From Chryseobacterium limigenitum (lineage in GTDB: Bacteria > Bacteroidota > Bacteroidia > Flavobacteriales > Weeksellaceae), in assembly GCF_900114875.1 (NCBI RefSeq), contig NZ_FPKW01000002.1:398590-462589 (forward strand): a stretch of DNA of 64,000 nucleotides. The letters are read 5' to 3'. Every line of letters begins with the position of its first letter. Position 1 is the stretch's first letter. Of the stretch, positions 16,408 through 62,124 are shown piece by piece. Below the pieces are notes generated by a model. The model saw only the letters and a list, made by a program, of their open reading frames with translations, was not told where the DNA came from and did no database searches. The position numbers and the translations under genes are program-made.

Positions 16408-16417
16408 TAGATTTAAT

Positions 16418-39302: not shown

Positions 39303-41072
39303 TTATAAAAAATTAAGTGGATTAATGCGTGCAATCTGATCAAATTCTTCTGTTGATAGACCTCCCATCATATCGGCAAGCATCTGCTTATCGGTTTTAT
39401 GCTTTCGTACCATATAAAAGTCTGTGCCAAAAAGTACCCGCTCTTTTAGCTTAGGGTTTTTGAGGGTTTGACGTAGAAGAGGCAGTATATTTGCATCACT
39501 GTGTAAAATATAGCTGATATCTGCATAGACATTATCATGCTGTAACATCATACTGCAGATCAGGGAATACCAGTCGGTGTATTTCCATAGCTGTTCTACT
39601 TTTATTCGGGATGCTTTACCGTTTGCACTGAGAAAATCTATACCTCTGTCAGGATAAACATTAATCTGATGTGCCCAATTGTCCCGGTCTTTTTCCATAA
39701 ATTTCACCCATTCTTCATCTCCTCCGAAATGAGCGAAGCATATTTTTAAATGACTCAGGTCGTTCTCAATAGTTTCTTTATCTTCGTTGTATCCAAAAAG
39801 TTCACGAATATTTTTATCTTTTGATTTTCCAACTAATTTTGCAAGCCATTCTTTTTTCAGTAGGCAGGCATAATTCATGGGATGAGTAAAGATTTCCTGA
39901 ACATCTTGTGCATTTATCTGTGGTAAAAGTAAGGGTTTAAAATATTTTTCATTTTTCGGATCATCATCCTGATTGCCTTCATATTGTTCAAAAACAGGAT
40001 GTTCATCCCAGCTTTTCTCTTTGCTTCCCCTATAAAAGATTGACCCTATAATGCAATGTGTCATTATAGGGATGTCATTATCAGCAGCATACTTCCATAA
40101 TGGTAATAATCTTTCATCAAAGGGATAATATCCTAAGGCGGGATAAATTTTAAAACCACTAAATTTATGTTCTTCTATGTAAGTTTTAATAAAGCAGGGT
40201 TCTAGAATCACTTTATCTTTCAGGATGCTGTAATCAAATAAATTTTGTGATCCAACCTTTGTACGACGGGGATCAACAAAAACAAACGGATAAATTTTTT
40301 CAGGATGACATTGTTTTATTTTAAGCAATTCTTTCATTTGCTCTGCATAGCTTTTCAAAGGCTTCCCTGCTCCCATAAATTCCATGTCCATAGGTAATAC
40401 AATGATTGCTGAATTATCGGGATATTGTCTGCGTAATCTTGAGAAGATTCTGAACTGATCTTGATATCGTGCAAAGTGAACAATATTCATATATCGTTTT
40501 GCCAGCTCTTTGGTTTGCTTCCCTGGCAACATTCCCATGAGTTTGGAGAATTTTCTCAAGATAAATAAAAGTAGATTTCTTCCAGAAGGAAAAAATATGA
40601 ATAGGACAATAAGCAATAGGCTTTTAAGCCACCAGTTTTCTGCTATTACTCCTAAAAAAGACTCCTGAATCCAACTTGTTGCGGTATCGGCATATTTTGT
40701 TGACAAATCGTTGGATATCATCCAGTCTTTAATGAAATAGCGGTACAATTCATAAAACATCAGCGAGAAAATAAAAAGCCCGATGAAAAATTTTAGAATT
40801 GCCAATATAGTATATCTTACCAATGCAATTCTGATTTTATAAAGAGTCTGCTTTAATATAATATACCAGCGTTGATATGGCCATTTGTAAGGACTATTTT
40901 CATTGTTGAACCACCACTTTACCAAAACTACCATTTTACTTATGTTGAGAAGTCTGTAAAATGGTTCAGGAAGAAAAGTTTTGGCTAAATAAGGAGGAAC
41001 ATAATCAGAAGTGAAAATGTGCGCATGGCAATTAATGATGGGCGGCTTTTTGTCAGAAGATTTCTTTTCCAT
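39303..41072 (-). CDS. Membrane-anchored amidohydrolase-fold protein
   Basis: The 589-residue protein has amidohydrolase metal-site motifs in order: INCHAHIF (HxH, about 14), FSGFKIYPALGYYP, IMTHCIIG (His, about 348), CFAHFGG (about 455) and LFGTDFYM (Asp, about 548). Inserted after the first motif are two membrane helices (about 100-122 and 155-180), so the barrel appears tethered to the membrane. This is unusual for amidohydrolase_2 enzymes. It heads the four-gene operon with the CHAT protease and MBL hydrolase. The substrate is unknown. Confidence 0.75.
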   Translation of the reverse strand: MEKKSSDKKPPIINCHAHIFTSDYVPPYLAKTFLPEPFYRLLNISKMVVLVKWWFNNENSPYKWPYQRWYIILKQTLYKIRIALVRYTILAILKFFIGLFIFSLMFYELYRYFIKDWMISNDLSTKYADTATSWIQESFLGVIAENWWLKSLLLIVLFIFFPSGRNLLLFILRKFSKLMGMLPGKQTKELAKRYMNIVHFARYQDQFRIFSRLRRQYPDNSAIIVLPMDMEFMGAGKPLKSYAEQMKELLKIKQCHPEKIYPFVFVDPRRTKVGSQNLFDYSILKDKVILEPCFIKTYIEEHKFSGFKIYPALGYYPFDERLLPLWKYAADNDIPIMTHCIIGSIFYRGSKEKSWDEHPVFEQYEGNQDDDPKNEKYFKPLLLPQINAQDVQEIFTHPMNYACLLKKEWLAKLVGKSKDKNIRELFGYNEDKETIENDLSHLKICFAHFGGDEEWVKFMEKDRDNWAHQINVYPDRGIDFLSANGKASRIKVEQLWKYTDWYSLICSMMLQHDNVYADISYILHSDANILPLLRQTLKNPKLKERVLFGTDFYMVRKHKTDKQMLADMMGGLSTEEFDQIARINPLNFL

Positions 41073-41750
41073 TACCGTATATTTTTACAGATGATGAACA
41101 ATAAGTAACGGAACGGTAAATAATTTGCTTTGAAAGAAGCAAGTAGGTAGAGGTGGATTTCATAATAAAATGGTTTTTAGTTTATAGCTAATGTACAATT
41201 TTTTCAGAATAAAAGTATATTTTCACCCACTAAATTATATGAACCCCAACAAAACTTATGAAAAAAAATTCTAATGAAAATCTTCTCTTATAAATTATTG
41301 TAAAAACAAATAAATTACACAAAGCCATTTAAAAAGAATTACCCTCAAAAAATTCTTATAGATGAAATTGAAAAAGAAGTCTATCAAAAGTCCGTTTATA
41401 AAATTTCTGAAATCAGCATTATGATTCTGCTTATTTCTATAGATTATAATATTTTCGATTATTCCGATAACACTAAGTTATATCATTTTAAACCATTTAA
41501 AACCGAGAAATGTTGTACCCAAGATTTCCGGGCATAAAAAAGTCCTCTTAAAAAGAGAGCTAAGTCATTGATTGTCATATAGTAAAATAGACGGAACTTG
41601 AGCCCGTACATCCTTGTGGATAAAGGTTTTAAGTCCTATGAATATTGGTTCTAAATATCGTACAATGGCTTATTTGGGGGAGTTTGTGTCGATATAGGAG
41701 TCCCGTAATAAACCAAGATAAACCATCATAAACCGCCATTTGTTCAAAAC
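41073..41750. other. Intergenic region with att-like, tRNA-3'-like remnant
   Basis: On the minus strand at about 41625-41575 there is ACGGG-CTCAAGT-TCCGT followed by CTATTTTAC, which looks like a tRNA T-arm and acceptor end without the rest of the tRNA. It is followed (41565-41485, minus) by AGCTCTC, a hairpin, TTGGGTACAACAT and GGTTTTAAATGG. This is the same order as behind the tRNA-Met at 8.5 kb, but inverted. The region is probably an attachment site left by an integrative element. The rest (41073-41480) is AT-rich, without a gene I can support. Confidence 0.5.
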
Positions 41751-42977
41751 CTACCCCTCCCCAAACTCCTTCAACAATTTTTTATCAATCAACCCTTCCA
41801 GAAAAGGATTTACAATCCCCTGCTGATAAGATTTATTGATAACATTGTACATGAAAAGATTGGTTTCTTTCTGTTCCTGTATAATTTCTTCAATCAGTTC
41901 GGGTGTTAAAAACTGAGCTCTTAACTCCTCTACTCTCTGCTTTTTCGCAAGATTTTTTTGTTTTTCCAGTTCGGTTTGTTTAGATTCTAGCTGTCCAACA
42001 TTTTTTTTCTTTTGCTTTTTTTCCGAGAGACTTTCAATTTCTTGTTTGTAATATCCGTTTTGCAGAGCCTTTAGAAAAAATCAACTTTTTTGTTTTACGG
42101 ATGTGGTTTTAAAATAATCTTTGCAGAATTTCAAAGTTTGTTTGACAAACTCTTCTTCAAATTCGGCTAAAATTTGATTTTCCAAAACCGATTGAGACAC
42201 GCCGAAAGACTTGATTTCATCGTGCCATTTATTTTCCTTACCGCTTTCATTCTCATTTTCCGTGTCATTATTGGTATTATCACTTTCAATGACCGTCTTT
42301 TTATTTTTGTGTATCGTGAAAACCAATTTTTCCACACTTCTGGAAAATTCAGAGATCTCCTCAAAAGTAAAACGGATGTCGGTATGTTTTTCAATATCTT
42401 CCTGAGCCTTAAGCAAAACCCTCTTTTTGAAGTTGGCATACTTTGCATATTTATCTTCTACACAAAGAATTTCTTTCAGTTCCTGAACTTCAAAAATTCT
42501 TTTTCCGATTCATTCGTAGCTCTTTAAAAGCTCATAAAAACGGATGCTGTGACCGGAAGAAATTTTCAGAATATTTTTTAGGTCGTACAAGAGAAATTTC
42601 GATTTCAATTGCAGAAGATAAGGTTTAAGAACCGGATGAAAACTCGCTTCCAAGACTCCTCTGCCGTCAACGGAATATTTAAATGACGAAACCAGAGCCG
42701 TTTTAATTTCTTTGTCTTTACCTTCCTCTTTTACAGGAATGGTAATAATCTTTTTGAGCATTGAAGTGGTCAGCGAATTAATCTCCGCATAAATATTCTT
42801 GTTTTTGATCCCGAAAGTTTGGATAATATTTTTAATCGGAATATTGTAGGTTTTAAAATCTTCGTCCTTGTCCTGGATCATACTGATGATCAAGGTAAAT
42901 AGCCTCATTTCCATCAGATTAAAAGAATATCTTGCAGTGACGAGCTCATGGGATTTTTTTACGGTAAGTTGGGTCAT
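41751..42977 (-). CDS. Rep_3-type plasmid replication initiator, two in-frame UGA
   Basis: Read from ATG 42977 to TAG 41751 this is a 408-residue initiator with TGA at 42510-42512 and 42081-42083. The N-terminus (TVKKSHELVTARYSFNLMEM) and the segment IRFYELLKSYE are typical of Rep_3 winged-helix initiators. Frame is kept through both TGA codons: KSYE-x-IGKRIFEV and KQKS-x-FFLKALQNG. Family knowledge favours Gly at the second (GFFLKAL-like end of the second winged helix). It then continues into a charged helical tail (about 300-408). Iterons for binding lie just upstream. Under the standard code the protein would stop at residue 155. Confidence 0.75.
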
Positions 42978-43215
42978 TTCTTTGATTGTACAAAGTAAAA
43001 TGTAGTATGTAGAATGTATTTTACAATTAGTTTTTGATTTATTATTCGTACATTATTTAAAAGCTACCTTTACAAGCTACTGTAATTTTTAAATGTTATA
43101 TTTCAATATATTTTTCCGTTAAACCCTAAATTTGTTATACTTCACAGAATCCTTGAATAAGTAGCCATTCCACCTTGTTTATGCAGCTGTAGTGCCTTAA
43201 TTCCGGTACTTTTTA

Positions 43216-43278
43216 CCCTGAATTTGTTATATTCCGCCCTGTTTTTGGTATCCTTTGCCCTAAATCTGATACCCAATG
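43216..43278 (+). repeat. Three 21-bp iterons
   Basis: Copies start at 43216, 43237 and 43258, with the core CCCT(A/G)AAT(T/C)TG(T/A)TA. Spacing of 21 bp (two helical turns) is typical of initiator binding arrays. Confidence 0.7.
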
Positions 43279-43474
43279 CTTCGTAAAGCCTTTGCAGTAG
43301 CCAATCTCAAAGCCTATAAACAATATAAGAACGTAAGTGATATAACATCTTAAACAGAGATAAAATAAAAGCTTAGTTGTTGTTAATTTTTAGATTTTTT
43401 TATCAATAACGGCTGAAAGCAAGAGTTTAAATACAATTTATTGAATCATTTCTTATTTTTAATCTGTAAAATAA

Positions 43475-43687
43475 GCTACATTTTCAGGGTATATTCAAAA
43501 GATTGTTTCAGGTTTAACAAAGGTTTTTTTCGGTGTTTGAATTGGCTTTGATAAAGAGATTCAGTGTCTAAAGTCTATTGATAATCTTTAGTTTTAAATT
43601 TCACGAATAGCTACATTTTTAGGGTAACTAAAGTTTTTCCATTTAAAATCTAAAATTTATAATTTCGGGGGGCTACATTTTCAGGGT
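43475..43687 (+). repeat. Three copies of GCTACATTTTYAGGGT
   Basis: Copies lie at 43475-43490, 43610-43625 and 43672-43687; two are identical over 16 bases and one differs at a single base. They lie between rep and the HTH-membrane gene and are probably a second set of initiator or regulator sites. Confidence 0.7.
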
Positions 43688-43703
43688 GGTAGACTCCTCT
43701 GCT

Positions 43704-44240
43704 CTAAAATTTCAGATTTCCTGTTGCAACAAGAACCACAAACAAAACTAAAATAATAGTTACCGCAATGGCAATAATAAAGTAAGTCGTTGCTTTGTTG
43801 GAGACACCCAATAATTGACCATACATTTCCTGGATCTGATTTTTAGCTTCCTGTTGATTGTTTTGCAGCTGGAGATTGTTTTCTTTGTAGATATTGATGA
43901 CTTCATAGTTTGATTTGATTACTTCTTCCTGCTCCTTAACTTTGAGCTGCAACATAAAATTTTCCTGTTTGATTTCCGTTGCCACTCACTCCTCTGCTCT
44001 GTTTGGTTGATGGTTGTCAGTCGTTGGTTGTCAGTCGTTCGTTACCGATTCGGTGGTAGATTCTAAAGGTTTACCCATTGCATCTGCCATTTTTTTCAGA
44101 TCGTCCCGGTTCAGATAACTGCTCTTTCCTTTGGAATCTACTTTGTTAATGAATTTGATATTCAACTTGTTTGCCCGGTTGTACAATGTAGTTGAACTCA
44201 CACCCAACATTCTCTCTGCCTCTGCTTTTGAAATTTCCAT
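43704..44240 (-). CDS. HTH protein with coiled coil and membrane anchor, two in-frame UGA
   Basis: From ATG 44240 to TAG 43704 there is one frame of 178 residues with TGA at 44031-44033 and 43986-43988. Residues 1-65 form a helix-turn-helix (KAEAERMLGVSSTTLYNRA, then KVDSKGKSSYLNRDDLKKMA). Next come a Gln/Thr-rich linker that carries both TGA codons, a coiled coil (about 92-145, with NNLQLQNNQQEAKNQIQEM) and a C-terminal membrane helix (about 153-175). The linker includes a 14-bp tandem repeat, so the residue at the TGA sites cannot be judged. Alternatively these are two genes, HTH (44031-44240) and membrane coil (43704-43985, GTG start). It lies just upstream of rep and may control replication or partition. 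Confidence 0.5.
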
Positions 44241-44857
44241 AAGATGTTATTAATGATAAATGATTTTGTATTGATAATTGACCGATAACTTTTGGTTATC
44301 ACGCAGTCTAAAGTCAGTGCAATACTTGCTTTTCTAATGCTTTATTACAACGGCATCAATGCTTGTAAAGCCTTTGTTACAGGATTTGCAAAACTTTATA
44401 AAACGTTGGAAGATGGATTGTCAAAGGTTTTAAAGACGTTTTTAAAACCCTTACGGATTTATAAGCATTGAAAACACTTTTTCAAGGTCTTTACCTTAAC
44501 AATCCCTTGACATTCATTGTATAAGGTTTGTTCATGTTTTAACAAACTTGAGTTTTGCTTTGCCAAGGCATTGTAAAAGCAGGGCAGAGGAGTGTGTAAA
44601 CCCTTATCAACACATTGTACAGCATTTTGCAAAGACGAGGAATCAACTGGTTCTCTTGATGAATTAAGCATTTACAAAGGATGTACGAACCTTCATAAAA
44701 CCTTATTAAAGCAGAGCGGAGGAGTCTGAATTGATGTAATAATCTAATAATGAAACAGTTTAACAATGCTTTGATTATGTTATAAATATAGCGTGTTTTT
44801 AATTGATGCATTGGTAAATTGATATATTGTTACATTGCTGAAAGCTGTGTTATATTA
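44241..44857. other. Intergenic region with GCAGAGGAGT-type repeats
   Basis: No credible gene is seen. The motif (A)GCAGRGGAGT occurs at 44584-44594 and 44711-44724 (with a short insertion). The region also has many short inverted words such as TTGTAAAGC and CAAAGGTTTT. It may be a transfer or control region of the plasmid module. Confidence 0.4.
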
Positions 44858-45925
44858 TTAAAACCATTGCTTTTTAATCTCAAGAGCAATCTTTGCGGTC
44901 ATCAGAGGCGGAACACTCATCCCACAAACATAGCGGACGGAAGTTCCACAGAAATCAAAATCACTTGGAAAACTGCTCATACGGATGTATTCTGTATCAT
45001 TGAGATTGCGAACTTCATTGTAATAAACGGCAGTTCAACTCGAAGTTAAAGTAGGAGCAACAATGTTATCATATAATATATAAGTGCTGAAAAAAGCATT
45101 GTAAGTGTTGAGGTTCCTGTATTTGGCATCCGCAAATTTCAGATTTTGGTCTCCAAACTCTACATACTGCCGTCTTTCGACAATGGAAGGTCGGAGATGG
45201 GGATGAGAAGTTGAGTTTCTATCAACAATTTCTCCGAAATAAACAGGTGGCTCGTTAAAATTTAAAACTAAGTCCGGGAGTTCTAAACTTTTCCTTCTTG
45301 CAATAAAGAAAATACGTTCACGAGCTTGCGGAACACCCATCGTTGCTGAATTGAGTCTGAAAACCTGTATTTGATATCCTAAATTTTCTAATCTTTCAAA
45401 GACTTCAATCGCATATTTTTTGGCTCTTCCGGCAACGAGTCCCGGAACATTTTCCATTACAACAACTTTGGGATTCAATTTTTCTACCGTATCACAGAAT
45501 ATAAACACAAGTTCATCCAAAATCTGTTTTTTCTGTCACTCTTTAAATACTTTTTCCTTTCCCCGATATTCCTCACGTTTTCAGGACATCGAAAAGGTAC
45601 TGCAAGGTGGAGAACCATCCAGAATATCCAAATTAAACAATTCTTTGGGAAGATTAGAACGTAGATTAAAATCCCTGATGTCTTCGTGGTAGTAATATTT
45701 GGGGGAGTGATTGGCTTGGTAGATCTTGGCCATTCTCCCATCTATTTCTACACCGCCCAAATGTTGAAAACCTGCGAGCTTATATCCCATCGTAGAACCG
45801 CCACCGCCTACAAAAGTTCAGAATACTTTCAGATTATGAACTGGTGGGTAATCATATTTTAAGTTTCGGTCATATTTTAAATTTTTCGTAATCTTTTCTG
45901 ATTTTGTGAATGGGAATTTCTTCAT
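44858..45925 (-). CDS. DNA (cytosine-5) methyltransferase, four in-frame UGA
   Basis: From ATG 45925 to TAA 44858 there is one 355-residue frame with TGA at codons 36, 115, 130 and 297 (45818, 45581, 45536 and 45035) and no other stop. Motif I is FVGGGGSTMGYKLAGF, motif IV DGSPPCSTFSM (catalytic Cys), motif VI VVMENVPGLV and motif VIII QARERIFFIA; the C-terminus has VCGMSVPPLM. Close relatives, as I recall them, have Gly at SM(A/S)-G-xRE, RE-G-Q and T(A/S)S-G, exactly where codons 115, 130 and 297 are TGA. Standard GGA, GGT, GGC and GGG codons also occur. No restriction enzyme is adjacent, so it may be an orphan or anti-restriction methylase. The true start could lie further upstream. Confidence 0.8.
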
Positions 45926-46127
45926 TTTTGAAGACCCTTTGTTTCATTCTTGGTTTGATTTTGCGCATCACGACATTTTTTCTTTGATGGTTGTATTTTG
46001 GTTTTCAGATGTTCATTTCATTTTTGTTTTAAGCAACTAAAAGATTTAGAAATTAAGAGATTTAGTGATTAGATAATTAATACATTCGCTATATTGTTAA
46101 ACTGTTACATTGATATATTGTTACATT
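45926..46127 (-). other. Short region upstream of the C5 methyltransferase
   Basis: A small overlapping frame begins ATG-CGC-AAA (about 45970 downward) and reads KPRMKQRVFKNEEIPIHKI, ending after two TGA codons. It may be a short leader gene or the methyltransferase's own N-terminal extension in another frame. The evidence is too weak to call a gene. Confidence 0.3.
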
Positions 46128-46919
46128 TTATATCGGATAATTCGCCACCAACACTTCCGTTTTCCTTTTGTTCAGAGCTTTTTTGCTATTGTGAGAAGCT
46201 GACAAAGGTTGGTCAAAGTTTTTTACATACCATTGATGCTCCTTTACAAACCTGTCGAGTATTTTAGATGGAAAATTACTTAGTAAAAATTTTCATTTGA
46301 TTTGAGATAATACCGTCAGATCTCTGATAAAATCATCTTCGTGATAACCTCCGTAATGTCATTGGTTCGTTCCGATATAAGGAGGGTCGCAGTAAAAGAA
46401 GGTATCTTCATGATCTCTCGACTGGATGACCTTATCCGCCTGATTCTGTTCAATTTGCGTGTAAGAAAGACGGTTACTCATTTCTTCTTTAAAATTTTGT
46501 ATTTTATTCTGAAATGTTGTAGGGCATTTGTTGTCCTTCGAATATCAAAAGCTACCTATACGACTGCAAAATCATTGATTGCATGAGACGTAAAATGCTC
46601 GTGCTCTTATGACGGGACTGTCTGCAAAAAGCCGGGGAGTTTCATAAATGAAAAGTGCTTTTTTATAGGTTTCTCTACTGTGAAGGGTAGCTTCGATTTT
46701 TTCGTGTAATGCTTTGTAGTTTTTCTTCAAAACTTCGTAGAAATTAACGACATTCATATTGGTGTCATTGATAATTTCCGAAGGAGAAGGCTCTTTAGCC
46801 CGAAACAGTGCGCCGCCTCAAAAATAAGGTTCTACATAGATTCTATGGGGAGGCGTCAATCAAAGAAGTTTTTTGACTAAATTCTGTTTCCCACCGTAAT
46901 ACGTAATCGGGGTTTTCAT
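46128..46919 (-). CDS. D12-class (Dam-like) DNA adenine methyltransferase, six in-frame UGA
   Basis: One 263-residue frame runs from ATG 46919 to TAA 46128, with TGA at codons 20, 34, 116, 125, 187 and 209 and no TAA or TAG. It starts MKTPITYYGGKQNLV (AdoMet motif) and has the catalytic DPPY (FFYCDPPYIGTNQ). Motif I reads YVEPYF-x-GGALF, where x=TGA; the family has Gly there (EPFxGGGA). Likewise SQIK-x-KFLLSNFPS matches IKGKFLLS, and TNQ-x-HYGGY matches a conserved Gly-His. So at least three TGA codons fall on expected glycines. Under the standard code the longest fragment would lack both active-site motifs. Confidence 0.85.
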
Positions 46920-47133
46920 TTTTGCTTTAAGCAGGGGAGTTTTATTTTTTATTGTTATTTTATTTTCAGAGAAATTGTTCATTTTCACTTTTTGTAAATA
47001 AAGTAAATGTATCTATTGCAGGGGAGTGTTGCTTAAGAAAATAAAATAGCCCGAGTAAAAAACTTGGGCTATTTCCATGAGTTCATTTTTGGAACGGAAA
47101 CCATTCCCAACCTTTGAATACCAAAGGTTTTAC
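46920..47133 (-). terminator. Intergenic segment with a terminator hairpin
   Basis: The stem AAATAGCCC / GGGCTATTT (47043-47077) is flanked by A and T runs. It separates the Dam-like gene from the acidic protein upstream. Two more copies of GCAGGGGAGT lie at 46931 and 47018. Confidence 0.65.
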
Positions 47134-47733
47134 TTACTTTTTTTCAGGTCTCTTATCTTCCTGCTTCTTACCGAAATGCGGTTTTTCTGAAGCAGGTTTA
47201 GAATCAGACTTGAAATTCTGTTTTTCTTCCAATTTCTTACCTTCAGATGATACATCCGAAGGTTTCGTAGATTCCGAAATTGGTTTGTCGGAATTTTCAG
47301 AAGCAGAATCTTGTTTTTCAGAAACAAATTCAGTCGTTGGAGTATGCTCCGGATTTTCTGATAGGATCACTTCTGAGTTTGATTCCAAGTTTTCTTCTGT
47401 TTCCTTTTCAAGAGCAGGATGGACTTTGGAATGCATCCACTCTTGCAAGGTTGGAAGTTGTGACACTTCCTTGCTCCATCGGCTCATCACATACGAGATA
47501 ATTTTGAAATCATCTCCGATAAGCTGTAAAAGTTCATTATTCTCCATTTCCACGAGGTTGAATTCCGATGGAACTTCGCCCTCGAAGTTGTGGGTAATAA
47601 TTTCGATCAATTCTTTTCGGGAAAAATGTTTGACCATTTCCGTACTGATCGATTGATACTGAGGTTCAGATTTTACTCTGTCCTTTAGCACTGCTGAGAA
47701 TATTTTCAAGAGTGCCGTTTTGTTTTCGTTCAT
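47134..47733 (-). CDS. Acidic protein with disordered tail, unknown
   Basis: In this 199-residue protein, residues 1-95 are helical (MNENKTALLKIFSAVLKDR, then WSKEVSQLPTLQEWM). The rest is low-complexity, rich in Glu, Ser, Lys and Pro, ending EDKRPEKK. The start region is similar in pattern to the protein at 49010-49594 (NENRLLVQCFMKML; ELxxIxxW; DDxxIxSYxxxRW), so the two may be paralogues. No in-frame TGA. Typical accessory gene of Bacteroidetes plasmids; function unknown. Confidence 0.65.
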   Translation of the reverse strand: MNENKTALLKIFSAVLKDRVKSEPQYQSISTEMVKHFSRKELIEIITHNFEGEVPSEFNLVEMENNELLQLIGDDFKIISYVMSRWSKEVSQLPTLQEWMHSKVHPALEKETEENLESNSEVILSENPEHTPTTEFVSEKQDSASENSDKPISESTKPSDVSSEGKKLEEKQNFKSDSKPASEKPHFGKKQEDKRPEKK

Positions 47734-47796
47734 ACTATTGGATTTTAATTGTTAGACATTTTGTTTAAAGATTTTGTTTTAGAGTCTTGTTTCTTT

Positions 47797-48012
47797 TTAA
47801 TTCATATGTAGCACCATAAAGCGCTCTCCTTCAACGGAAGAACCGTCTTCAGATAGCTTTCCGCTTTGGATAAGAGATTGTCTCACTTGATCAGCCTTTC
47901 GGTAACTTTGATAAAAGGATTTCGGCTGAAAATGAACGATATCTATACAACTTGTTTTGTGTACGATGATAAAAACGGTAAGAACAAATACACTATGATC
48001 CTGCCTGTTCAT
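47797..48012 (-). CDS. Small unknown protein
   Basis: The 71-residue frame has a protein-like C-terminal half (YQSYRKADQVRQSLIQSGKL). Its ATG overlaps the TGA of the preceding small gene (ATGA), which suggests translational coupling under the standard code. No domain recognised. Confidence 0.45.
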   Translation of the reverse strand: MNRQDHSVFVLTVFIIVHKTSCIDIVHFQPKSFYQSYRKADQVRQSLIQSGKLSEDGSSVEGERFMVLHMN

Positions 48013-48221
48013 ATTGTTATCGTATAAATGATGACAAACTGAGTGGTATTTTCATTCGGAATGATTTGTTCAATTTTTTTATCTTCATTAAAGAGTGTTC
48101 CAAGCCCGAAATTCAAAAAGTCTACAAATTCCATAGGTTCTTCTGGAAAAGATTCAAGATAGTTTTGATGCATTTCAGCATTAATAATCATGATTTGCTT
48201 TACTGTTTTTTTGTTTTCCAT
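48009..48221 (-). CDS. Small unknown protein
   Basis: The 70-residue frame begins MENKKTVKQIMIINAEMHQN and contains an acidic, Phe-rich segment (PEEPMEFVDFLNFGLG). It is preceded by the leader CTAAAACAAAATG, which recurs before several genes of this module. It ends at a TGA that overlaps the next ATG. Confidence 0.5.
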   Translation of the reverse strand: MENKKTVKQIMIINAEMHQNYLESFPEEPMEFVDFLNFGLGTLFNEDKKIEQIIPNENTTQFVIIYTITI

Positions 48222-48251
48222 TTTGTTTTAGGTAATGTTTTTTTTAGATTT

Positions 48252-48506
48252 TTATTCTACTAAATCATCAAGTCCCATTCTTTTGTAGATTTCGAGATTA
48301 TGCTCGAAAGCTCCTTTGCAACGGTGGGTTGGCTTTCTGTCTTCACCTTCCGTTCCGTGGCAGATTTGATGGGCTTGAAGTAAAGTTCTTGCAATGACAT
48401 CATTGGCTAATTTTACATCCTGCCATTCTCCCTTTTTATTTGGTTTAAATGGACAGGTTTTGCAATAATTTTTCATCACCGGAACTTTTTCAGGGTCTAT
48501 TTTCAT
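48252..48506 (-). CDS. Small Cys/His-rich protein, possible zinc or iron-sulfur binding
   Basis: I prefer the ATG at 48504-48506 (MKIDPEKVPVMKNYCKTCPF), giving 84 residues. Four Cys occur as CKTC, C(HGTEGEDRKPTHR)C, with His nearby; this is the spacing of a small metal-binding domain. Such proteins are frequent in phage and plasmid modules. Function is unknown. Confidence 0.6.
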   Translation of the reverse strand: MKIDPEKVPVMKNYCKTCPFKPNKKGEWQDVKLANDVIARTLLQAHQICHGTEGEDRKPTHRCKGAFEHNLEIYKRMGLDDLVE

Positions 48507-48544
48507 AAGATTGATTAATAATGAATGACAATTGATAAAAGTTT

Positions 48545-48979
48545 CTACTTCATCCAGTATTTTTCGGATTCCTGAAATCCAACCCAATTATTGTCGTCAA
48601 ATCCTCTGCAACCAAGTTCGTGACGGATGATTTTTTCCAATGGAATCTGATATTTCAGAATGAATTTGAGCAGTTCGCCCTCCATCACTTGAAATTTACC
48701 AATGATCTCCTCCCAATGGGACAAGATTTCCGGGTCACCTACAATTCCTTTCAGATCGCCAAACGTCCAATGTTGGTAATTTTCGGGAAGTGAATAGTAC
48801 TGATGTGTGATTTCCATTTCTTCGGCGGTTTGCTTGTCTGCAACGGCATAGTTGCCTTCCTCCGGTCCATCAAACACCACAAATTGCTTATTAACATTCC
48901 TATGCTCAAATTCCAGCCATAACGCCCTGTCTCTGGCTTTATCCAGATTATCATAAGATTCTAATATTGATTGTTTCAT
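48545..48979 (-). CDS. Hypothetical protein of the plasmid module
   Basis: The 144-residue protein has an N-terminal segment LDKARDRALWLEFEHRNVNK, VVFDGPEEGNYAVAD, and a Trp/Phe-rich C-terminus (NNWVGFQESEKYW). It has about eleven glycines, all GGN, and no TGA, in contrast to the methyltransferase genes nearby. No family recognised. Confidence 0.6.
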   Translation of the reverse strand: MKQSILESYDNLDKARDRALWLEFEHRNVNKQFVVFDGPEEGNYAVADKQTAEEMEITHQYYSLPENYQHWTFGDLKGIVGDPEILSHWEEIIGKFQVMEGELLKFILKYQIPLEKIIRHELGCRGFDDNNWVGFQESEKYWMK

Positions 48980-49009
48980 TTTTGTTTTATAAAATAATTG
49001 GATAAAAAG

Positions 49010-49594
49010 TTACAGGCTTAGGATTTGGAGCTGAGTTTCGGGAAAATCTTCTTCACTCATCAGTAGTGCTATTTTCTCCTGAGCTTCCCAATGGGTTGGG
49101 TAATATTGGGAAAGCGGAAGCGTGATGTATTTATCTTCTTCCTTTACAGAAGATTCAAATACGGCATACAAGGGTTGAGGAGTTCCCGCCTTTCGGCACA
49201 ATGCCTTAAAGTTGCTGTGGTCGTACTCATCCCAGTCCGCCAAAATCTTGGTCATTAAATAATGTGTTTCGATCTGCAACTGACAAAGTACTTCATAGAC
49301 TTTCTGTGGAGTGATTTTCTCTTCCGGTTCTTTGTTCCATCTTTCGATGAAGTAAGACAGAATATGAATATCATCAGCGATGGCTTCAAGCAAATCTTGT
49401 TTGTCCATCGTTTCAAAATCATACGATTCAGGTGCTCTATCTGGGTACATCCACTTAAAGATTTTTTGAAGTTCATCTTTACTTAAGATACTGCCGAATA
49501 CGGAACTGATGTTTTCCACACGATCTCCTTCGATTCTTTGCTGGAGCATTTTCATAAAGCATTGTACCAAGAGGCGGTTTTCGTTTTTGTTCAT
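49010..49594 (-). CDS. Hypothetical protein of the plasmid module
   Basis: The 194-residue soluble protein begins MNKNENRLLVQCFMKMLQQR. It shares spacing of helices with the acidic protein at 47134-47733 (IFKWMYPDRAPESY; DDIHILSYFIERWNKEP versus DDFKIISYVMSRWSKEV), which suggests an old duplication. No enzyme motif. Confidence 0.6.
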   Translation of the reverse strand: MNKNENRLLVQCFMKMLQQRIEGDRVENISSVFGSILSKDELQKIFKWMYPDRAPESYDFETMDKQDLLEAIADDIHILSYFIERWNKEPEEKITPQKVYEVLCQLQIETHYLMTKILADWDEYDHSNFKALCRKAGTPQPLYAVFESSVKEEDKYITLPLSQYYPTHWEAQEKIALLMSEEDFPETQLQILSL

Positions 49595-49637
49595 TGTTTT
49601 TAATAGATTTTAGAGGTTAGACCATAATACTTACTGC

Positions 49638-50246
49638 TTATTGCGTTGAGCATTGAAAAAGAAATTCGTTTTCATCAGGAAGATCATCCAAAGGAAATGA
49701 GGCAATGATTTTGACAGGATAATAATCGTTTTCTCCGTCATAAATACTGTAGAAACGATCTTCTTCTGAAATACAGGAAGTGTTGAGACCTTTGTAAACT
49801 TCAAAAGTATTTTTATCATAATCAATCACATAAGCCCATTCGCAGAATAAACTGTCGGAGGCAAAATCGTAAGCATCAGTAGTTGCGATTTCGTCAAGAT
49901 GACGAAACTCCAACAATACTTCCAAGATTTGTCCTTCGATTAGTTTTCCGTAGCGTTCACGGTAGCGGAAAGGGTAGCGTTTTTTGAACGCATCCTTCTG
50001 CTTTTCGTTGAGAATTCCGTTGGTACAGCTGATAGATTCCAGAAATTCGTCTTGTCGTTTTTGGTCTTTTTTATTCCAAAGACGTACTTTGGGTAGGATT
50101 TCTTTCAGATTTTCGGTGTTCTCAGGATTGCTAAAGAATTGTAACAGCTTGAGACCGAGTGAATCCGGATAGCCATCGAATTGTCCATAACAGGCTACTT
50201 TCACTTCTTGATTGTGAACCACCACGGTTAGGTTTCTTGTTCCCAT
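49638..50246 (-). CDS. Conserved-looking protein of unknown function
   Basis: Starting at ATG 50244-50246 (MGTRNLTVVVHNQEVKVACY) gives 202 residues. The N-terminal NLTVVVHNQEVKVACYGQFD recurs, as I recall, in uncharacterised phage and plasmid proteins. The C-terminal half has the strands WAYVIDYDKNTFEVYKG. No catalytic motif is evident. It is the first gene of the minus-strand run, next to a long divergent leader region. Confidence 0.65.
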   Translation of the reverse strand: MGTRNLTVVVHNQEVKVACYGQFDGYPDSLGLKLLQFFSNPENTENLKEILPKVRLWNKKDQKRQDEFLESISCTNGILNEKQKDAFKKRYPFRYRERYGKLIEGQILEVLLEFRHLDEIATTDAYDFASDSLFCEWAYVIDYDKNTFEVYKGLNTSCISEEDRFYSIYDGENDYYPVKIIASFPLDDLPDENEFLFQCSTQ

Positions 50247-51258
50247 TTTGTTTTTGTTTTTCTTGATTGTTGTTAATTTTTGTGTCACTAGTTGATTGTT
50301 ACGTTGTTGATTTTTTCATTCTTTGTTATAAGGGGTTTTAATTTGTTGATGGTTAGTTTGTTGATTTGGATTGTTTCATTTTGTTTTAGAGATTTTTTGT
50401 GTTAAGAATTTTTTTCAGTTGACTGTTTTTGAGTTTTGATTTTGAATAGGTTTTGTTAATTTTTTGTGTTTTGATAGATTTTGATAAATTTTGAATTGAT
50501 AGTTTGTTTTACATTGTTTTAGATTTTCGGTTGTTTGTTTTTCGTTTTGTTTTAGGATTTTGATTTTTTTGGTAGATTGATAGGTGTTACATTTTTTTTG
50601 TTTTAGATTTTGTTTTCTTTAGTCTTTACATTTTTGTTTTAATTGATTTGGTATGTTTTGCCGGCGATGGTGCTTGTATGGATTTTTGGTTGACTTGCAA
50701 GAGAAGTTGATGTAGTTTGACTTTACATTTTTACTTTTTATAGATAGGAAGATGGTAATTAGGGAAAGTGGAAAAAGGGAGATATTATGGCATAGAAATT
50801 GCAGTTAAAAGCTCGATAAACAGGGCGATTTCTGCTTTTCTTTGGAGGTTGCCAAAAAGGTAGTCTAAAAGGTTCTCAATAAGGTATTCTAAAGTATATT
50901 GACATTTTATCGACACTCGACACACCTTAATCGAAAGAACTTGACTTCGCATAAAAAATCCATAAGTAGCACCATCACTTTTATGAGAAACAGTTCCGAT
51001 ATATTTTAACAATCCATTCCAGGAAATTCAATCAAAAGCCAAGAATCCTGCTCTTTATTTCCTTTACAAAACCATGCTTTTTTAAGCCAAGTTTTAATTC
51101 CAAAAAAACAAATGCATCCGTATTCTGTTTTATTTCTTCTTCCGGATCAGGCAATTTGTTAAGCGATACAACTTAATTTTTTAAAATTCATACCTGAATT
51201 CTTTAAAAATTTAATCTGAAAATTCAAACCGAAACTCAACCCCAAAAATTATTTTATC
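50247..51258. other. Long divergent intergenic region, T/G-rich
   Basis: About 1 kb separates the minus-strand run from the VirD4-like gene. The first 450 nt are strongly strand-biased (T and G on the plus strand), with repeated TTTTGTTTTAG words that match the gene leaders of this module. A small 75-codon minus-strand frame (50785-51012) and a preceding fragment (reading LPDPEEEIKQNTDAFVFLEL, about 51165-51106 minus) look protein-like but are broken, so they may be remnants of a gene. Confidence 0.45.
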
Positions 51259-53169
51259 ATGAATTCAACCATTCAATTCTGGAACAAAACTTCTTTTCTG
51301 TGGAAAATTAGAACCCAAGAACCTTATATTTTAGCAGGAAGTTATTTACTTGCCGGACATCCTTCGGGTCGGGATGCTTTGCTTTCAGAACGAATAAAAG
51401 CAATCGATAAAAATCTCTCCCGACTGGATAAAAGCTCGATTCATTACCGTAAAGAACTTCAAAAAAGATTTCTGACCTTCAAGGAATTTGAAGAAATGAG
51501 AACCAAGAAAACGGTAAACAAAGAAAAATTGGAAAGAACAGTATCCGTTTCGCCTGCTTTGGAATATTGGAATCTTTTATTAAAACACCCGAAATTTTTA
51601 TCTTTTTTTACCGGCGATGATGAACACGACTATCAGAAACTTCTTTCATTTTGTCTTCCTTCGCTACACCCATTATTTTTTGCTCCAAAGCCTGTCCCAT
51701 TTCCCGTTTCCGCTTTAGACAGGCATTGTTTCCTTAGTGGTAGGACAGGCTCAGGAAAAACGGAATTTATGAAAGCAATTGCTTACCAAATTCAGCATCA
51801 ATCCCAATTGAAACAGCAACACTCAATAATTCTTTTGGATCCTCATGGAGATCTATCTGAAAGCCTATTAGCATTCCGCCTCAATCTTCAGAAACCTGAA
51901 CGTGTGTGGTATATTGATCCTCAGTTGGAAAATAGAAAAATTCCCTGCATCAATCCATTTTGGCAGCGTGTCGCGGAACCCTTCTTAATTGACGTAATGT
52001 CCCAACAATTTGCCAAAGCATTTTCAGAATTAATTCCCGAAGCAGGAATGTCTCTCCAAATGGAGGCTTTGCTTAAACCTTGCCTTTCTGTTTTGCTTGA
52101 AAGAGGAGGATGCGGATTATCCGACCTACAGGTCTTTATGGATGATACCCAAAATGCAAAATGGGTGGAATTGGGAAAGAAATCTTCGTTTCAGGTCTAC
52201 CGTCAATTTTTTGAAACGGCATTCCTCAGTAAGAAGTATGCTCCTACCAAACTGGCCATATACACGAGATTGCAACATCTCCAAAACAATATGATGTTCT
52301 ACCACATGATGAATGGAAAAAGCAATATCGACCTAAAGAAAGGAATGCAAGAAGGAAAGGTGATGTTGTTCAACCTATCTAAAGGAAAATTGGGAGAAGA
52401 TGCGAGCAGAGCACTCGGAAGATTTGTTTCGGCAACCATTCTGAGCATCGTATTTCAGAGGGCGTTCGAATCCGAACATTCAAGAAAGCCATGTTATCTT
52501 TTAATTGATGAATTCCATAATTTCACGACAGAAAGCGGAAGTATCCAAACGATATTTTCTGAGGCCAGGAAGTACAAACTGCGTTTGATCGTTGGAACAC
52601 AAAGTGTCGGTCAGATCCCATTATCATTAAAGAATTCAGTTTTGAATAACTCGGCTGTTAAATTGGCGGGAATCAACGGTTTGCCTGCGCTTAAAGAATT
52701 GGCTGGTGATTTTGGAGTTTCTTATGCTGCGATGCAGAGTCTGTTACCTTATGAATTCTATTTAAAACATGATCATTTTTCTGCGGTAAAAATTAAAAGC
52801 CCCGATTTTCTGATCAAACAGCCGAAAAGATATTTTTGCAACAAGGAAGAACTGAAAAAACTAAAAGCCTATTTGTTGTCCGAATCGGGAATTTACAGAG
52901 ACATTATCAATGTCAATACTATTCCAACACAAATGCAGTTTCAAAATAAAAGTCAAAATCAATCGAACGAATCTACACCAAATCCGGTTCATTCGCCAAC
53001 TTTGATTTCTTCAAAAACCAAATCGACTTTAGAAAATACCACTCATGAAACTATAAATCCTGCATCAGATTCCGAGGCTACAATTCGGCCAGCAACAGAA
53101 AATTCTGAAACCGTACCTCAAAATTCCACAGAGTCCAGCGGAAGTATTAAACCTAAGTTTCATCTGTAA
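51259..53169 (+). CDS. VirD4/TraG- or HerA-like DNA-transfer ATPase
   Basis: The 636-residue protein has Walker A FLSGRTGSGKTEFMKA (about 157), the Walker B-like strand SIILLDPHGDLSE, a second acidic strand CYLLIDEFHNFTTESG (about 413) and the sensor LIVGTQSVGQIP. This is the TraG/VirD4 or HerA-FtsK type of motor that couples DNA to a conjugation or mobilisation machine. The last 90 or so residues are Ser/Thr/Asn-rich and disordered. There is no membrane helix, unlike classical VirD4. It is followed by a replication-relaxation gene. Confidence 0.82.
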   Translation: MNSTIQFWNKTSFLWKIRTQEPYILAGSYLLAGHPSGRDALLSERIKAIDKNLSRLDKSSIHYRKELQKRFLTFKEFEEMRTKKTVNKEKLERTVSVSPALEYWNLLLKHPKFLSFFTGDDEHDYQKLLSFCLPSLHPLFFAPKPVPFPVSALDRHCFLSGRTGSGKTEFMKAIAYQIQHQSQLKQQHSIILLDPHGDLSESLLAFRLNLQKPERVWYIDPQLENRKIPCINPFWQRVAEPFLIDVMSQQFAKAFSELIPEAGMSLQMEALLKPCLSVLLERGGCGLSDLQVFMDDTQNAKWVELGKKSSFQVYRQFFETAFLSKKYAPTKLAIYTRLQHLQNNMMFYHMMNGKSNIDLKKGMQEGKVMLFNLSKGKLGEDASRALGRFVSATILSIVFQRAFESEHSRKPCYLLIDEFHNFTTESGSIQTIFSEARKYKLRLIVGTQSVGQIPLSLKNSVLNNSAVKLAGINGLPALKELAGDFGVSYAAMQSLLPYEFYLKHDHFSAVKIKSPDFLIKQPKRYFCNKEELKKLKAYLLSESGIYRDIINVNTIPTQMQFQNKSQNQSNESTPNPVHSPTLISSKTKSTLENTTHETINPASDSEATIRPATENSETVPQNSTESSGSIKPKFHL

Positions 53170-53236
53170 ACACAAGTTCTTATAAGAATACAAGGCATTT
53201 TTATGCTGTATTTTAATTTTTAAAAAACTCAAAAAA

Positions 53237-54088
53237 ATGGTTACCAAAAGATTATTCTTTCAAACACTTTCTCCTTCACAGGAAAAAATTCTTTTAGCTT
53301 TGGCTCGTTACAAATACCTTACAGCAGGGCAATTGCTCGGTCTCGGAATTATGTCGGACAGAGCGAATCTCAACAAGCAAATTGCAGAACTCAGACTTCG
53401 GAAAGATCCGTTGGTGGGTTCTATTGCATTCGGAGTTCATCCTGCAATAGGGAAACTCGAAAATGTACATTTTCTCAAGGCTCATGGTGCTGAAATTGTT
53501 AAAGATTATTTGAGAGAAGATGTTGTCAGGTTTCCGAAAAATGAAGGTCAATTTTATCAAAAGGATTACTTCCATAGAATGAACACTATTAATGTTCAAA
53601 TCGCTTTGCACGAAGGAATTTCCAAAAATGAGGGTTGTGAAATGCTCCTATTCTTAACGTATTTCGATAAGGTTTCTACGGGAAAGAAGAAAGGGTATAG
53701 AGCGGAATCTTCCATCCAAGTCTCTGAAAATGATTATTTGATTGCCGATGCACTTTGTATGCTTCAAACACCGAACAGAAAAGAGTTGTATGCCATTGAA
53801 ATGTGTAACGGAGACGATACAAGTCGTGTTCACAAATCGTTGTTTCATCATTTGAGGGCATTGTCAGTAGGGCAACCGAGCAGAATGTTTGGGTTGGATT
53901 ATGGAAGCCGTATTCTCTGTATCTTCGAACTGGAAGTGTATAAACAAATGGCGATGAAGAGATTGTTTGAAGATAATAGCTTTGCGGAAGCAAAATTCCA
54001 CTTTTTATTCAAATCCTTAGAGGAGATTGGGCAAAATGCTTTTGAGGATTGGTGGTTGTTTGATGGGGAGAAAGTAGGATTATTTTAA
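53237..54088 (+). CDS. Replication-relaxation family protein
   Basis: The 283-residue protein starts with a winged helix (SPSQEKILLALARYKYLTAGQLL, about 13-35), followed by LHEGISKN and an alpha/beta domain with DALCMLQTPNRKELYAIEMCNGD. This combination matches the replication-relaxation proteins (Pfam Replic_Relax) found with mobilisable elements. It follows the transfer ATPase by about 67 nt and probably works with it. Confidence 0.75.
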   Translation: MVTKRLFFQTLSPSQEKILLALARYKYLTAGQLLGLGIMSDRANLNKQIAELRLRKDPLVGSIAFGVHPAIGKLENVHFLKAHGAEIVKDYLREDVVRFPKNEGQFYQKDYFHRMNTINVQIALHEGISKNEGCEMLLFLTYFDKVSTGKKKGYRAESSIQVSENDYLIADALCMLQTPNRKELYAIEMCNGDDTSRVHKSLFHHLRALSVGQPSRMFGLDYGSRILCIFELEVYKQMAMKRLFEDNSFAEAKFHFLFKSLEEIGQNAFEDWWLFDGEKVGLF

Positions 54089-54199
54089 GAAAAATTATTA
54101 AATTCACTAACAATATAATAGAATACTCGTTATTTTGTTTAAAAGTGTACTAATTTTGGAAATTATAGTGTCTTAAATCCTAATTTCCATTTTTCACAG

Positions 54200-56194: not shown

Positions 56195-56952
56195 TGAAAT
56201 ACCATTATATTATTATTGAAAATGAAACCGATGTTGAAGAATTTATAACTACTATTTTAGGAAACTATAAAAAGTATAAAAAAATAGGAAGTGCAGTAGA
56301 TTACCAACAGGGGCTTGCTTTAATTTTGGAGAAAAAACCTGATCTTATTTTTTTGGATATGAAGCTGGAAGGGGAAAAAAGCGGAATTGATCTTTTGGAT
56401 GCTTTACGGCTTCATTATATACAAACCCCTCCTGTTATCGTAATCAGTGGACATGATGAATATGCCAAGTTTAGCCTAAATAAAAAAGCATTATATTTTA
56501 TTTCTAAACCAATTGATTTGAGTGAGATGAGTATTGCGTTGGCTGAATTTGAAAAGCAGTTTAATAGTAAGAGAAAGAGACTTTCAATCAAAACAAATTA
56601 TGGTCGTGAGCTGATAGAATTTGATACTTTGGTCTATCTGGAAGCCTCCAAAAATTACACTGAACTATATATAACAGGAGCAAAAGCCAAGCATATCTAT
56701 GCTAAAAATATAGGCGAAATGGAAAAACTTTTAAACGGGGATTTTTTAAAAATACATGAATCTTATATTGTGAATGTGAAATTTATTGCCGAAATATCCA
56801 CCACAAAAAAAGAAATAAGACTCAAAAATTACATTCCTTCTGATGGTATTACATCGCCTAAAAACAGAAAATCAGAAGAGCAGGGCTCTCAATCGGTATA
56901 TCTTCCGATTGGTTTAAAGTACCTTGAAAGGGTAAAAAACCATTTGCTGTAA
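56194..56952 (+). CDS. LytTR-family response regulator
   Basis: In this 252-residue protein, residues 1-120 form the receiver domain with the phospho-acceptor Asp in LIFLDMKLEG (about 54), VIVISGH and the Lys in FISKPIDL. Residues about 135-252 form the LytTR DNA-binding domain (LEASKNYTELYI; FLKIHESYIVNVKFI). It overlaps the sensor kinase gene and forms its partner. Genes under its control are not evident, though the secreted CHAP protein follows about 300 nt downstream. Confidence 0.92.
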   Translation: MKYHYIIIENETDVEEFITTILGNYKKYKKIGSAVDYQQGLALILEKKPDLIFLDMKLEGEKSGIDLLDALRLHYIQTPPVIVISGHDEYAKFSLNKKALYFISKPIDLSEMSIALAEFEKQFNSKRKRLSIKTNYGRELIEFDTLVYLEASKNYTELYITGAKAKHIYAKNIGEMEKLLNGDFLKIHESYIVNVKFIAEISTTKKEIRLKNYIPSDGITSPKNRKSEEQGSQSVYLPIGLKYLERVKNHLL

Positions 56953-57258
56953 TTGTTTTTTATATCGTTTGTCCTTATTATATATACATAGATTCATTTT
57001 TTTATACTTTTCGTCATTTTTTCATCGGAAACGCCTTCTAACACCTGCTTTTCGCAGGTTTTTTCTTGTAGATTTGAAATATTACAAATCTCTTGAAAAT
57101 GCAATGCCAATGGATACACTATAATATATTCTATCAATGATTGTTTTCGAAAAACAATGTATTGCGTAGGAAACTCATCCTATGTCACCAGAAACTTTGT
57201 CGGTGGATAAAGAAATGGGAGGAATAAACAAAAATATCAACCAAAAAAATTAATAAAA
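56953..57258 (+). other. Intergenic region with terminator and inverted repeat
   Basis: The stem ACCTGC / GCAGGT followed by T6 (57041-57066) ends the two-component operon. A further inverted repeat, ATTGTTTT-CG-AAAACAAT-like, lies near 57139-57158 and may be a regulator site for the CHAP gene. Confidence 0.6.
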
Positions 57259-59091: not shown

Positions 59092-59420
59092 TGTTTACAA
59101 TTATAAATAAAAGACTATATAATAGAGGAACGATATAATATCTATTATGTGATCATTTTCAAGACATTTATGTAAAATATAGCCCGTCAAATTTTGCGGT
59201 TAATATTTCTTTCAAAAAGACAAATATTTGCTCAGGCAGGTTGCTTGTTTACCATCCTACTTAATTCGTAAAGGAAGCAATTTAATTTCACAAGCTTAAT
59301 AAGATCTATGTAACCAAATGTATCAATGCGTCACTAAAGTCACTCAAAAATACTGGTTAAGTAAGCAATAATTTTAAGATACTGAAGCTTCCGAAGAATA
59401 AAAAAGCAAAAAGAGAGCTG
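59092..59420. other. AT-rich intergenic region, no feature seen
   Basis: No credible coding frame, repeat or terminator was found between the UGA-rich gene and the XRE regulator. It should contain the promoter of the UGA-rich gene. Confidence 0.4.
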
Positions 59421-59801: not shown

Positions 59802-59802
59802 A

Positions 59803-59834
59803 GCAGGTTATAAATTATAACATGGCAGGTTATA
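59803..59834. promoter_or_regulatory. Direct-repeat operator upstream of the XRE gene
   Basis: GCAGGTTATA occurs at 59803-59812 and 59825-59834, 22 bp apart (two helical turns), just before the regulator's start codon, with TTATAAATTATAA between them. Confidence 0.55.
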
Positions 59835-59920
59835 TATTAAAACTATACAAACTTACAAAATCAAAATGATGTAGCCATTTTTGTACTTATAATTTTTCAA
59901 ACTAACTTTAAAAACTATAT

Positions 59921-60358: not shown

Positions 60359-60418
60359 TTTTCAAGACACAAATAAGGGTTGGACAATGTTCAATCCTTT
60401 TTTTAATCATTATTTACT

Positions 60419-61294: not shown

Positions 61295-61335
61295 ATAACA
61301 TCAGCAATTCTTACAATTAAAAAACACCAACATCT

Positions 61336-62097: not shown

Positions 62098-62124
62098 AAA
62101 CTTGAATTAAATAAGCTCATGATG

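What the first reader, a model, noticed from the sequence alone, without database searches (positions are those of the whole stretch)
46128..46919. Dam-like methyltransferase with six UGA codons at glycine positions
Reading TGA as sense gives one intact D12-class adenine methyltransferase with no TAA or TAG interruption. Three of the six TGA codons fall on positions I know to be glycine in this family: YVEPYF-x-GGALF, SQIK-x-KFLLS and TNQ-x-HYGGY. Random decay would also give frameshifts and other stops. This is the best evidence in the window that UGA means Gly.
Basis: partly seen in the sequence, partly recalled or inferred. Interest (0 to 1): 0.93.

Follow-up and report, generated by a model that had tools for sequence, protein, structure and literature searches.

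The report
Mobile element using UGA for glycine
A likely mobile DNA element in this bacterial chromosome has the stop codon UGA where related proteins have glycine, in its replication, regulator and DNA-methylation genes but not in its other main genes; we found no tRNA that reads UGA in the host, so these genes would stay silent until one is supplied.

Summary
Window 46128-46919(-) is an intact D12 adenine methyltransferase gene with six in-frame TGA and no TAA/TAG. It belongs to an element (about 41751-54088) in which Rep3, a MerR/excisionase-like gene, a C5 methyltransferase and Dam carry 17 TGA, while the small genes tabulated, a TraG/HerA-type ATPase and its partner carry none. TGA-bearing Dam genes occur in 7 of 173 genomes of the host's genus and in three other Bacteroidota MAGs. 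TGA swaps with GGN between copies; Dam TGA columns coincide with glycine columns of TGA-free homologues (11 of 18, P=1.6e-12; Trp 0); dN/dS past the first TGA is about 0.1. So UGA stands for Gly here, under selection. It is not the genome's code: host ORFs end in TGA and RF2 is present. No UCA tRNA was found in elements or host. I infer an operon-level 'code lock', opened by a UGA-reading glycine tRNA supplied in trans. Sister elements' recombinases sit inside a larger clade that is probably also UGA=Gly.

The parts
46128..46919 (-). Dam-like D12 adenine methyltransferase gene, 6 in-frame TGA (codons 20, 34, 116, 125, 187, 209)
44858..46036 (-). C5 cytosine methyltransferase gene, 7 in-frame TGA; start uncertain (the first three TGA lie in an N-terminal extension without homologues)
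   Evidence: PF00145 E 3.8e-44
43704..44240 (-). small MerR/excisionase-like gene, 2 in-frame TGA
   Evidence: phrog_66 E 2.5e-4, weak; conserved in L035 and L036
41751..42977 (-). Rep3 plasmid replication initiator, 2 in-frame TGA (codons 156, 299)
   Evidence: PF01051 E 1.1e-36, PF21205 E 1.2e-14
47134..50288 (-). block of seven small ORFs (47134-47733, 47797-48012, 48009-48221, 48252-48587, 48545-48979, 49010-49594, 49638-50288) without internal TGA; 48009-48221 ends in TGA
   Evidence: five of the seven tabulated over the elements: 0 TGA in 309 Gly-type codons
51259..53169 (+). HerA/TraG-type ATPase (possible coupling protein), no TGA here; TGA-bearing in the recombinase-type sister elements
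   Evidence: PF10412 E 4.8e-9, PF01935 E 2.8e-8
53237..54088 (+). ATPase partner, possibly relaxase-related, no TGA here
   Evidence: no Pfam match itself; its relative in G000:C34 matches Replic_Relax PF13814 at 23.3 bits, below the cut-off 25.3
41483..41573 (-). inverted, 75% identical copy of the 101 bases just past tRNA-Met (8501-8601), beside the left end of the element; possible trace of recombination

Best explanation
UGA stands at glycine sites in one block of genes of a likely integrated mobile element, while its other main genes avoid UGA and its host keeps the normal UGA release-factor gene. Shown: the modular split, the Gly identity, and purifying selection past the UGA codons. Inferred: in an ordinary host cell the Rep3 initiator, the two methyltransferases and the regulator stop at the first UGA, so the integrated element lies dormant and is copied passively. 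Full-length proteins are made only when a glycine tRNA with anticodon UCA is supplied in trans, most likely by a co-resident or infecting helper element, and the element then replicates and methylates its DNA. UGA would act as an operon-wide translational lock that reports the presence of the helper.
For: Gly identity. Function past the stops: dN/dS window vs L035 after the first TGA 0.083 Dam, 0.098 C5, 0.105 Rep3, 0.097 regulator. Modular split: five small genes 0 TGA of 309 Gly-type codons; ATPase and partner 0 of 299 in seven Rep3-type elements; Dam 67 of 163, C5 45 of 193, regulator 16 of 55, Rep3 18 of 104, serine recombinase 62 of 204. Standard host. No decoder in elements or host. Same element family linked: the marker small gene is found in 6 of 173 genus genomes, all six among the 7 with TGA-bearing Dam. 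Old and persistent: 28 recoded Dam rows form one starred clade.
Against: No helper and no tRNA-Gly(UCA) linked to these hosts was found, so the decoding step rests on inference alone. The Rep3-type and recombinase-type elements lock different gene sets (ATPase and partner are UGA-free in one, UGA-bearing in the other), so the lock has no single fixed logic. 11 of 45 Dam TGA sites are not Gly-consensus, among them codon 20 of the window gene. Nothing here shows expression. Excision, circular forms or transfer were not seen.
Confidence: 0.5

Rival explanations
1. Two-code shuttle: the element passes between Bacteroidota and bacteria whose own code reads UGA as Gly (Absconditabacteria/Gracilibacteria, class JAEDAM01). 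The UGA-free genes would serve it in Bacteroidota, the UGA genes in the code-25 cell; no helper tRNA is needed.
For: Recombinases of the sister elements lie inside a clade of 31 (support 0.997) whose other 12 members are Trp-rich and Gly-poor, as code-25 genes look when called with table 4 (the source of those 12 is inferred, not named by a call). No decoder was found in Bacteroidota hosts.
Against: In the scan of one genome per GTDB species the three TGA-bearing Dam loci come from records titled Bacteroidetes or Flavobacterium, none from JAEDAM01, though only exact peptide patterns were scanned and 80 of 95 loci kept. Two elements in one genome share an 89% tract amid 66-78%, so they meet in this host.
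Confidence: 0.3
2. The UGA codons are read at low level by near-cognate host tRNAs, a built-in brake on Rep, recombinase and methyltransferases.
For: No dedicated tRNA found; no need for a partner; the UGA-bearing genes could be needed at low dose.
Against: Near-cognate reading of UGA is expected to insert mostly Trp, Cys or Arg (recalled); the sites are Gly in homologues and Trp is absent there. Up to 17 TGA in one 591-aa ORF would leave almost no product. The base after TGA is spread like that after GGN.
Confidence: 0.07
3. Decaying pseudogenes or a sequencing or assembly error.
For: TGA is a stop in this host; the G539 copy is really broken (5 TGA plus 1 TAA, shortened); three of the matched stretches (G277 ATPase, G463 and C47 partner) hold a TAA or TAG.
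Against: The same six TGA in L035 at 12% divergence; TGA at Gly columns with P 1.6e-12; dN/dS about 0.1 past the TGA; no TAA/TAG in any of the seven Dam genes aligned; independent genomes, one in 2 contigs.
Confidence: 0.02
4. UGA means Trp in this element (code 4).
For: Database proteins such as P0002 show W at the six sites, which looks like table-4 gene calling.
Against: 0 Trp among TGA-free homologues at the Dam TGA sites; 0 of 4 Trp-consensus columns has TGA; other copies have GGN at these columns and never TGG.
Confidence: 0.02

Closest known systems
NCBI genetic code 25 (Absconditabacteria/SR1 and Gracilibacteria, class JAEDAM01)
   Same: UGA used as a glycine codon beside GGN
   Different: Here only some genes of an element use it; the host has RF2 and no UCA tRNA was found; passages of PMC8629427 describe code-25 genomes as having tRNA-Gly(UCA).
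Alternatively coded phages with suppressor tRNAs (code 15 and code 4 phages such as crAss-like and Lak phages)
   Same: Mobile DNA in a standard-code host with part of its genes written in another code (passages of PMC10746230; PMC9523058 and others seen as listings only)
   Different: Glycine instead of Gln or Trp; plasmid/integrative genes instead of phage structural genes; no tRNA of its own found in the sister elements searched
Rep3 plasmids and integrative mobilizable elements of Bacteroidota
   Same: Rep3 initiator (38.9% to a plasmid of Aureispira), HerA/TraG-type ATPase, serine recombinase in sister elements
   Different: Initiator or recombinase gene interrupted by conserved UGA; found inside chromosomal contigs
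D12 adenine methyltransferases (DpnM, E. coli Dam)
   Same: PF02086; PDB 2dpm E 8.7e-11 and 2g1p E 8.8e-7
   Different: Six codons are UGA, five of them at Gly or Gly/Ser positions

Membership tests
D12-class adenine methyltransferase | Pfam PF02086 above its cut-off | tested here: met
   88.8 bits, cut-off 22, with UGA read as Gly
D12-class adenine methyltransferase | methylates adenine in DNA | not testable with these tools
   needs expression and assay
Code 25 organism | UGA=Gly in the genes of the genome at large | tested here: not met
   long host ORFs in the window without TGA, several ending in TGA
Code 25 organism | release factor 2 absent | tested here: not met
   prfB at 496.6 bits, cut-off 370
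Code 25 organism | tRNA-Gly with anticodon UCA | tested here: not met
   none among the 56 tRNA matches in G000 (150 of 410 candidates were scored; two matches gave no readable anticodon); pattern searches negative
Alternatively coded mobile element | in-frame stops conserved as one amino acid in part of its genes | tested here: met
Alternatively coded mobile element | carries the suppressor tRNA that reads the codon | tested here: not met
   (control: host tRNA-Asn found at 78.1 bits)
Integrated plasmid / integrative mobilizable element | plasmid replication initiator | tested here: met
   Rep3_N and Rep3_C above cut-offs, UGA read as Gly
Integrated plasmid / integrative mobilizable element | site-specific recombinase and att repeats | tested here: inconclusive
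   serine recombinase in sister elements C34, G277, G463, L039, C47 but none found in the window element; no shared 14-mer between the two flanks tested
Integrated plasmid / integrative mobilizable element | relaxase | tested here: inconclusive
   only a sub-threshold Replic_Relax match in the C34 relative

The most novel reading that the evidence does not exclude
A two-language mobile element: operon by operon it is written either in the standard code or in UGA=Gly, so that the genetic code itself, not a repressor, decides in which cell or at which moment its replication, recombination and methylation genes can be made; it lives in standard-code Bacteroidota and is unlocked by a partner (helper phage or plasmid, or a code-25 epibiont) that brings UGA=Gly decoding.
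Probability: 0.5. Interest if true: 0.95.

Novelty: new variant of a known kind. Interest (0 to 1): 0.88.

Why it matters
Codes that differ from the host's are known for phages and for some cellular lineages. A UGA=Gly lineage of plasmid-like or integrative elements inside standard-code Bacteroidota, split by operon and without a tRNA of its own, would be a new way to control a mobile element and could link the code-25 world to ordinary bacteria. It predicts where a UCA tRNA-Gly should turn up, and it warns that gene callers write such genes with Trp or as broken genes.

Tried and rejected
Tried without result: a UCA tRNA in the window, sister elements and host genomes, by ARAGORN, Rfam, own scripts, DNA patterns and an unfiltered covariance model. 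One genus-wide pattern hit that looked possible (G526) was fetched and is not a tRNA. The conserved stretch upstream of the small-gene block looked like a possible RNA; in C34 and G277 it reads as protein on the other strand (read by eye, not tested further). Serine recombinase and Rep3 scans of IMG/VR found no relatives; the A2 scan found two distant ones. UCA tRNAs in IMG/VR contigs could not be tied to Bacteroidota or to Gly.

Rejected: pseudogene, UGA=Trp, single-assembly error, genome-wide code 25 (reasons under rivals and membership). I first took the T9SS-tail gene in G000:C34 (29419-30807) as recoded; its three TGA all lie in the first 85 codons, so its start is probably wrong. I do not use it as an argument, but it is still among the 30 genes counted.

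Full report
What is in the window. Code 25 gives an unbroken 263-aa ORF at 46919-46128 with TGA at codons 20, 34, 116, 125, 187 and 209. It is a D12 methyltransferase, related by sequence to solved DpnM and Dam structures. Three more ORFs on the same strand become whole only when TGA is sense: a C5 methyltransferase (44858-46036, 7 TGA), a Rep3 initiator (41751-42977, 2 TGA) and a small MerR/excisionase-like gene (43704-44240, 2 TGA). In 41751-46919 the share of sequence in open frames of at least 120 codons rises from 0.28 in code 11 to 0.74 in code 25; in window 1-41000 it is 0.89 and 0.93. The host is standard: long ORFs without TGA, several ORFs ending in TGA, RF2 present.

Is UGA glycine? 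The same six TGA stand in L035, whose Dam gene differs at 97 of 792 bases. Of 148 tblastn matches in 144 fetched loci, 7 had a stop inside: four (L035, two in L036, L039) carry 6-8 stops, which are all TGA in the later translations, and three viral loci have 1-2 stops at other sites. A search of 395 genomes of the phylum gave two more loci with 6 TGA each, G000:C34 and G277. In all 173 genomes of the genus, 21 have a Dam match, at 24 loci: 9 loci in 7 genomes carry TGA (G000 and G418 two each; the G539 copy is also broken by a TAA), 14 have no stop and 1 has a TAG. Against 134 TGA-free homologues, 34 of 45 TGA sites in seven genes are Gly-consensus; residues there are 65.7% Gly (background 5.7%) and 0 Trp. 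By column: 11 of 18, P=1.6e-12. Between TGA-bearing genes of four families, 70 of 108 aligned non-TGA codons at TGA columns are GGN and none is TGG (the L036 C5 stretch used there starts upstream of its ORF and includes one other stop). The C5 gene agrees: codons 73, 152, 167 and 334 are Gly in 98, 104, 104 and 103 of 104 homologues without Trp at Gly columns (4 of the 104 are gaps at codon 73); codons 8, 23 and 31 lie in an extension that none of these covers. Of the 120 listed homologues each, 24 Dam and 16 C5 proteins have Trp at Gly columns; I take these as UGA genes translated with table 4, as P0002 shows at exactly the six sites.

Selection past the stops. dN/dS between window and L035 after the first TGA is 0.083 (Dam), 0.098 (C5), 0.105 (Rep3) and 0.097 (regulator). 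In 30 recoded genes from seven elements TGA (207) is second only to GGA (259) among Gly-type codons, with no marked bias of the next base (one of the 30, with 3 TGA, has a doubtful start).

Modular code. tabulates 12 elements. Five small genes, where found (2 to 5 of them per element, none in C47): 0 TGA among 309 Gly-type codons. ATPase and partner: 0 of 299 in the seven Rep3-type elements (window, L035, G455, G418a, G418b, G494, L036; in G418b the partner match covers no Gly codon), but 6-9 and 3-5 TGA per gene in C34, G277, G463 and L039 (in C47 only the partner was found, 5 TGA). Three matched stretches hold a TAA or TAG (G277 ATPase; G463 and C47 partner), so some copies are damaged or misaligned. 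Dam, C5, regulator, Rep3 and recombinase carry TGA in every element where they were found. One small ORF (48009-48221) ends in TGA; its C34 relative has TGA at the same place, followed in both by an open stretch of similar letters but different length. That fits UGA as stop there but does not prove it.

History. With Trp at Gly columns masked, the recoded Dam rows need 3 label changes on the tree (27.9 in shuffles); 28 rows, all recoded, form one starred clade. L036b (a very long branch) and P0116 lie outside it, and P0108 is sister to the unrecoded P0043 (the bootstrap had not fully settled). The elements' serine recombinases and their near relatives (19 rows of 480 aa or more, support 1.0) lie inside a clade of 31 (support 0.997) whose other 12 members are Trp-rich and Gly-poor. 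One further row, P0327, met my crude composition rule and was left out; with it the group is not one clade. I infer that those 12 are UGA=Gly genes of code-25 organisms called with table 4; no call names their source. Two elements of G000 share an 89.3% identical tract (window 47220-50247) amid tracts of 66-78%, which suggests recombination between them.

What reads UGA? Nothing that I could find. ARAGORN finds only tRNA-Met at 8411 in the window and no tRNA in the fetched stretches of the sister elements, apart from tRNA-Asn on L209 and on L530. A tRNA covariance model run without filters over L035, L036, L039, L206-L209, L254 and window 40500-58000 finds the L209 tRNA-Asn at 78.1 bits and otherwise nothing above 12.0 bits. 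The later stretches L525-L530 were scanned by ARAGORN only. Of 56 tRNA matches in G000 (150 of 410 candidates scored) and 70 in G277 (150 of 259 scored), none has anticodon UCA where one could be read; a few odd matches give no readable anticodon. A UCA pattern in G277 and the genomes of L035, L036 and L039 gave only strings that I judged by eye not to be tRNAs. A pattern for a class I UCA tRNA with U73 matches 65 of 173 genus genomes; I read the listed strings by eye only: four lie in a tRNA-like RNA (see noticed), one in G526 was fetched and rejected. A tRNA of unusual build could have escaped.

How it most likely works. Shown: two sets of genes, one UGA-free and one UGA=Gly, the second under selection, in a host with RF2. 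Inferred: in the ordinary host the second set is not made at full length, and a UGA-reading glycine tRNA must come from outside. Whether it comes with a helper (my choice, by a small margin) or by passage through a code-25 cell is open.

Literature. I saw passages of PMC8629427, PMC10746230 and PMC13092985; other papers only as search listings with the start of their abstracts. Seven searches listed no paper whose title or abstract start reports UGA=Gly elements in Bacteroidota. The code screen of PMC8629427 left out Pfam models of transposons and other mobile elements (passage), so it may have missed such cases.

Noticed in passing
window 11326-27204: Defence island: Gabija (GajB 14524-16407, GajA 16418-18559), an ATPase like PDC-M62A (11326-13536) and two large nSTAND NTPase genes (18920-22831, 23812-27204).
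   Followed up: partly
window 8411-9797 and 41483-41573; G455:C1:1674774-1675715: A NUMOD4 (homing-endonuclease type) gene follows tRNA-Met; the 101 bases after that tRNA recur inverted (75%) beside the left end of the element, and in G455 DNA like this gene lies next to Rep3.
   Followed up: no
L271 103-211 (-) = G277:C1:239502-239610: A 109-nt RNA with a tRNA-like body whose anticodon loop is replaced by a conserved insert of about 40 nt; 37 of 60 genus genomes match, 32 of them over at least 94 of 109 bases, G000 not.
   Followed up: partly
L179 660-2941 and 9135-9277 (G000:C18); L251 3711-5732 (G277:C5): Arrays of 13 and 16 tRNA genes; in G000 followed some 6 kb on by odd tRNA-like pieces overlapping a Y RNA-like match below Rfam's cut-off.
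   Followed up: partly
L206 2972-8632 (G000:C34:22971-28631): A 1204-aa ORF with 28 in-frame TGA (TSP1 domain) and a 669-aa ORF with 5 (Peptidase_S74), beside the second UGA element of the same genome.
   Followed up: no
window 59404-63325: 92% identical to the DNA that directly adjoins the same element in G455, so the window element may continue here behind an insert at about 54.1-59.4 kb.
   Followed up: no
L389 1342-1417 (-); L358, L380, L409, L414, L419, L439: IMG/VR contigs with predicted UCA-anticodon tRNA genes; the one in L389 has U73, G1-C72 and C2-G71, as expected of a glycine tRNA.
   Followed up: partly
G539:C1:2283949-2284590 (L501): A broken relative of the Dam gene (5 TGA and 1 TAA, N-terminus missing), showing what real decay looks like; the marker small gene is absent from that genome.
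   Followed up: no
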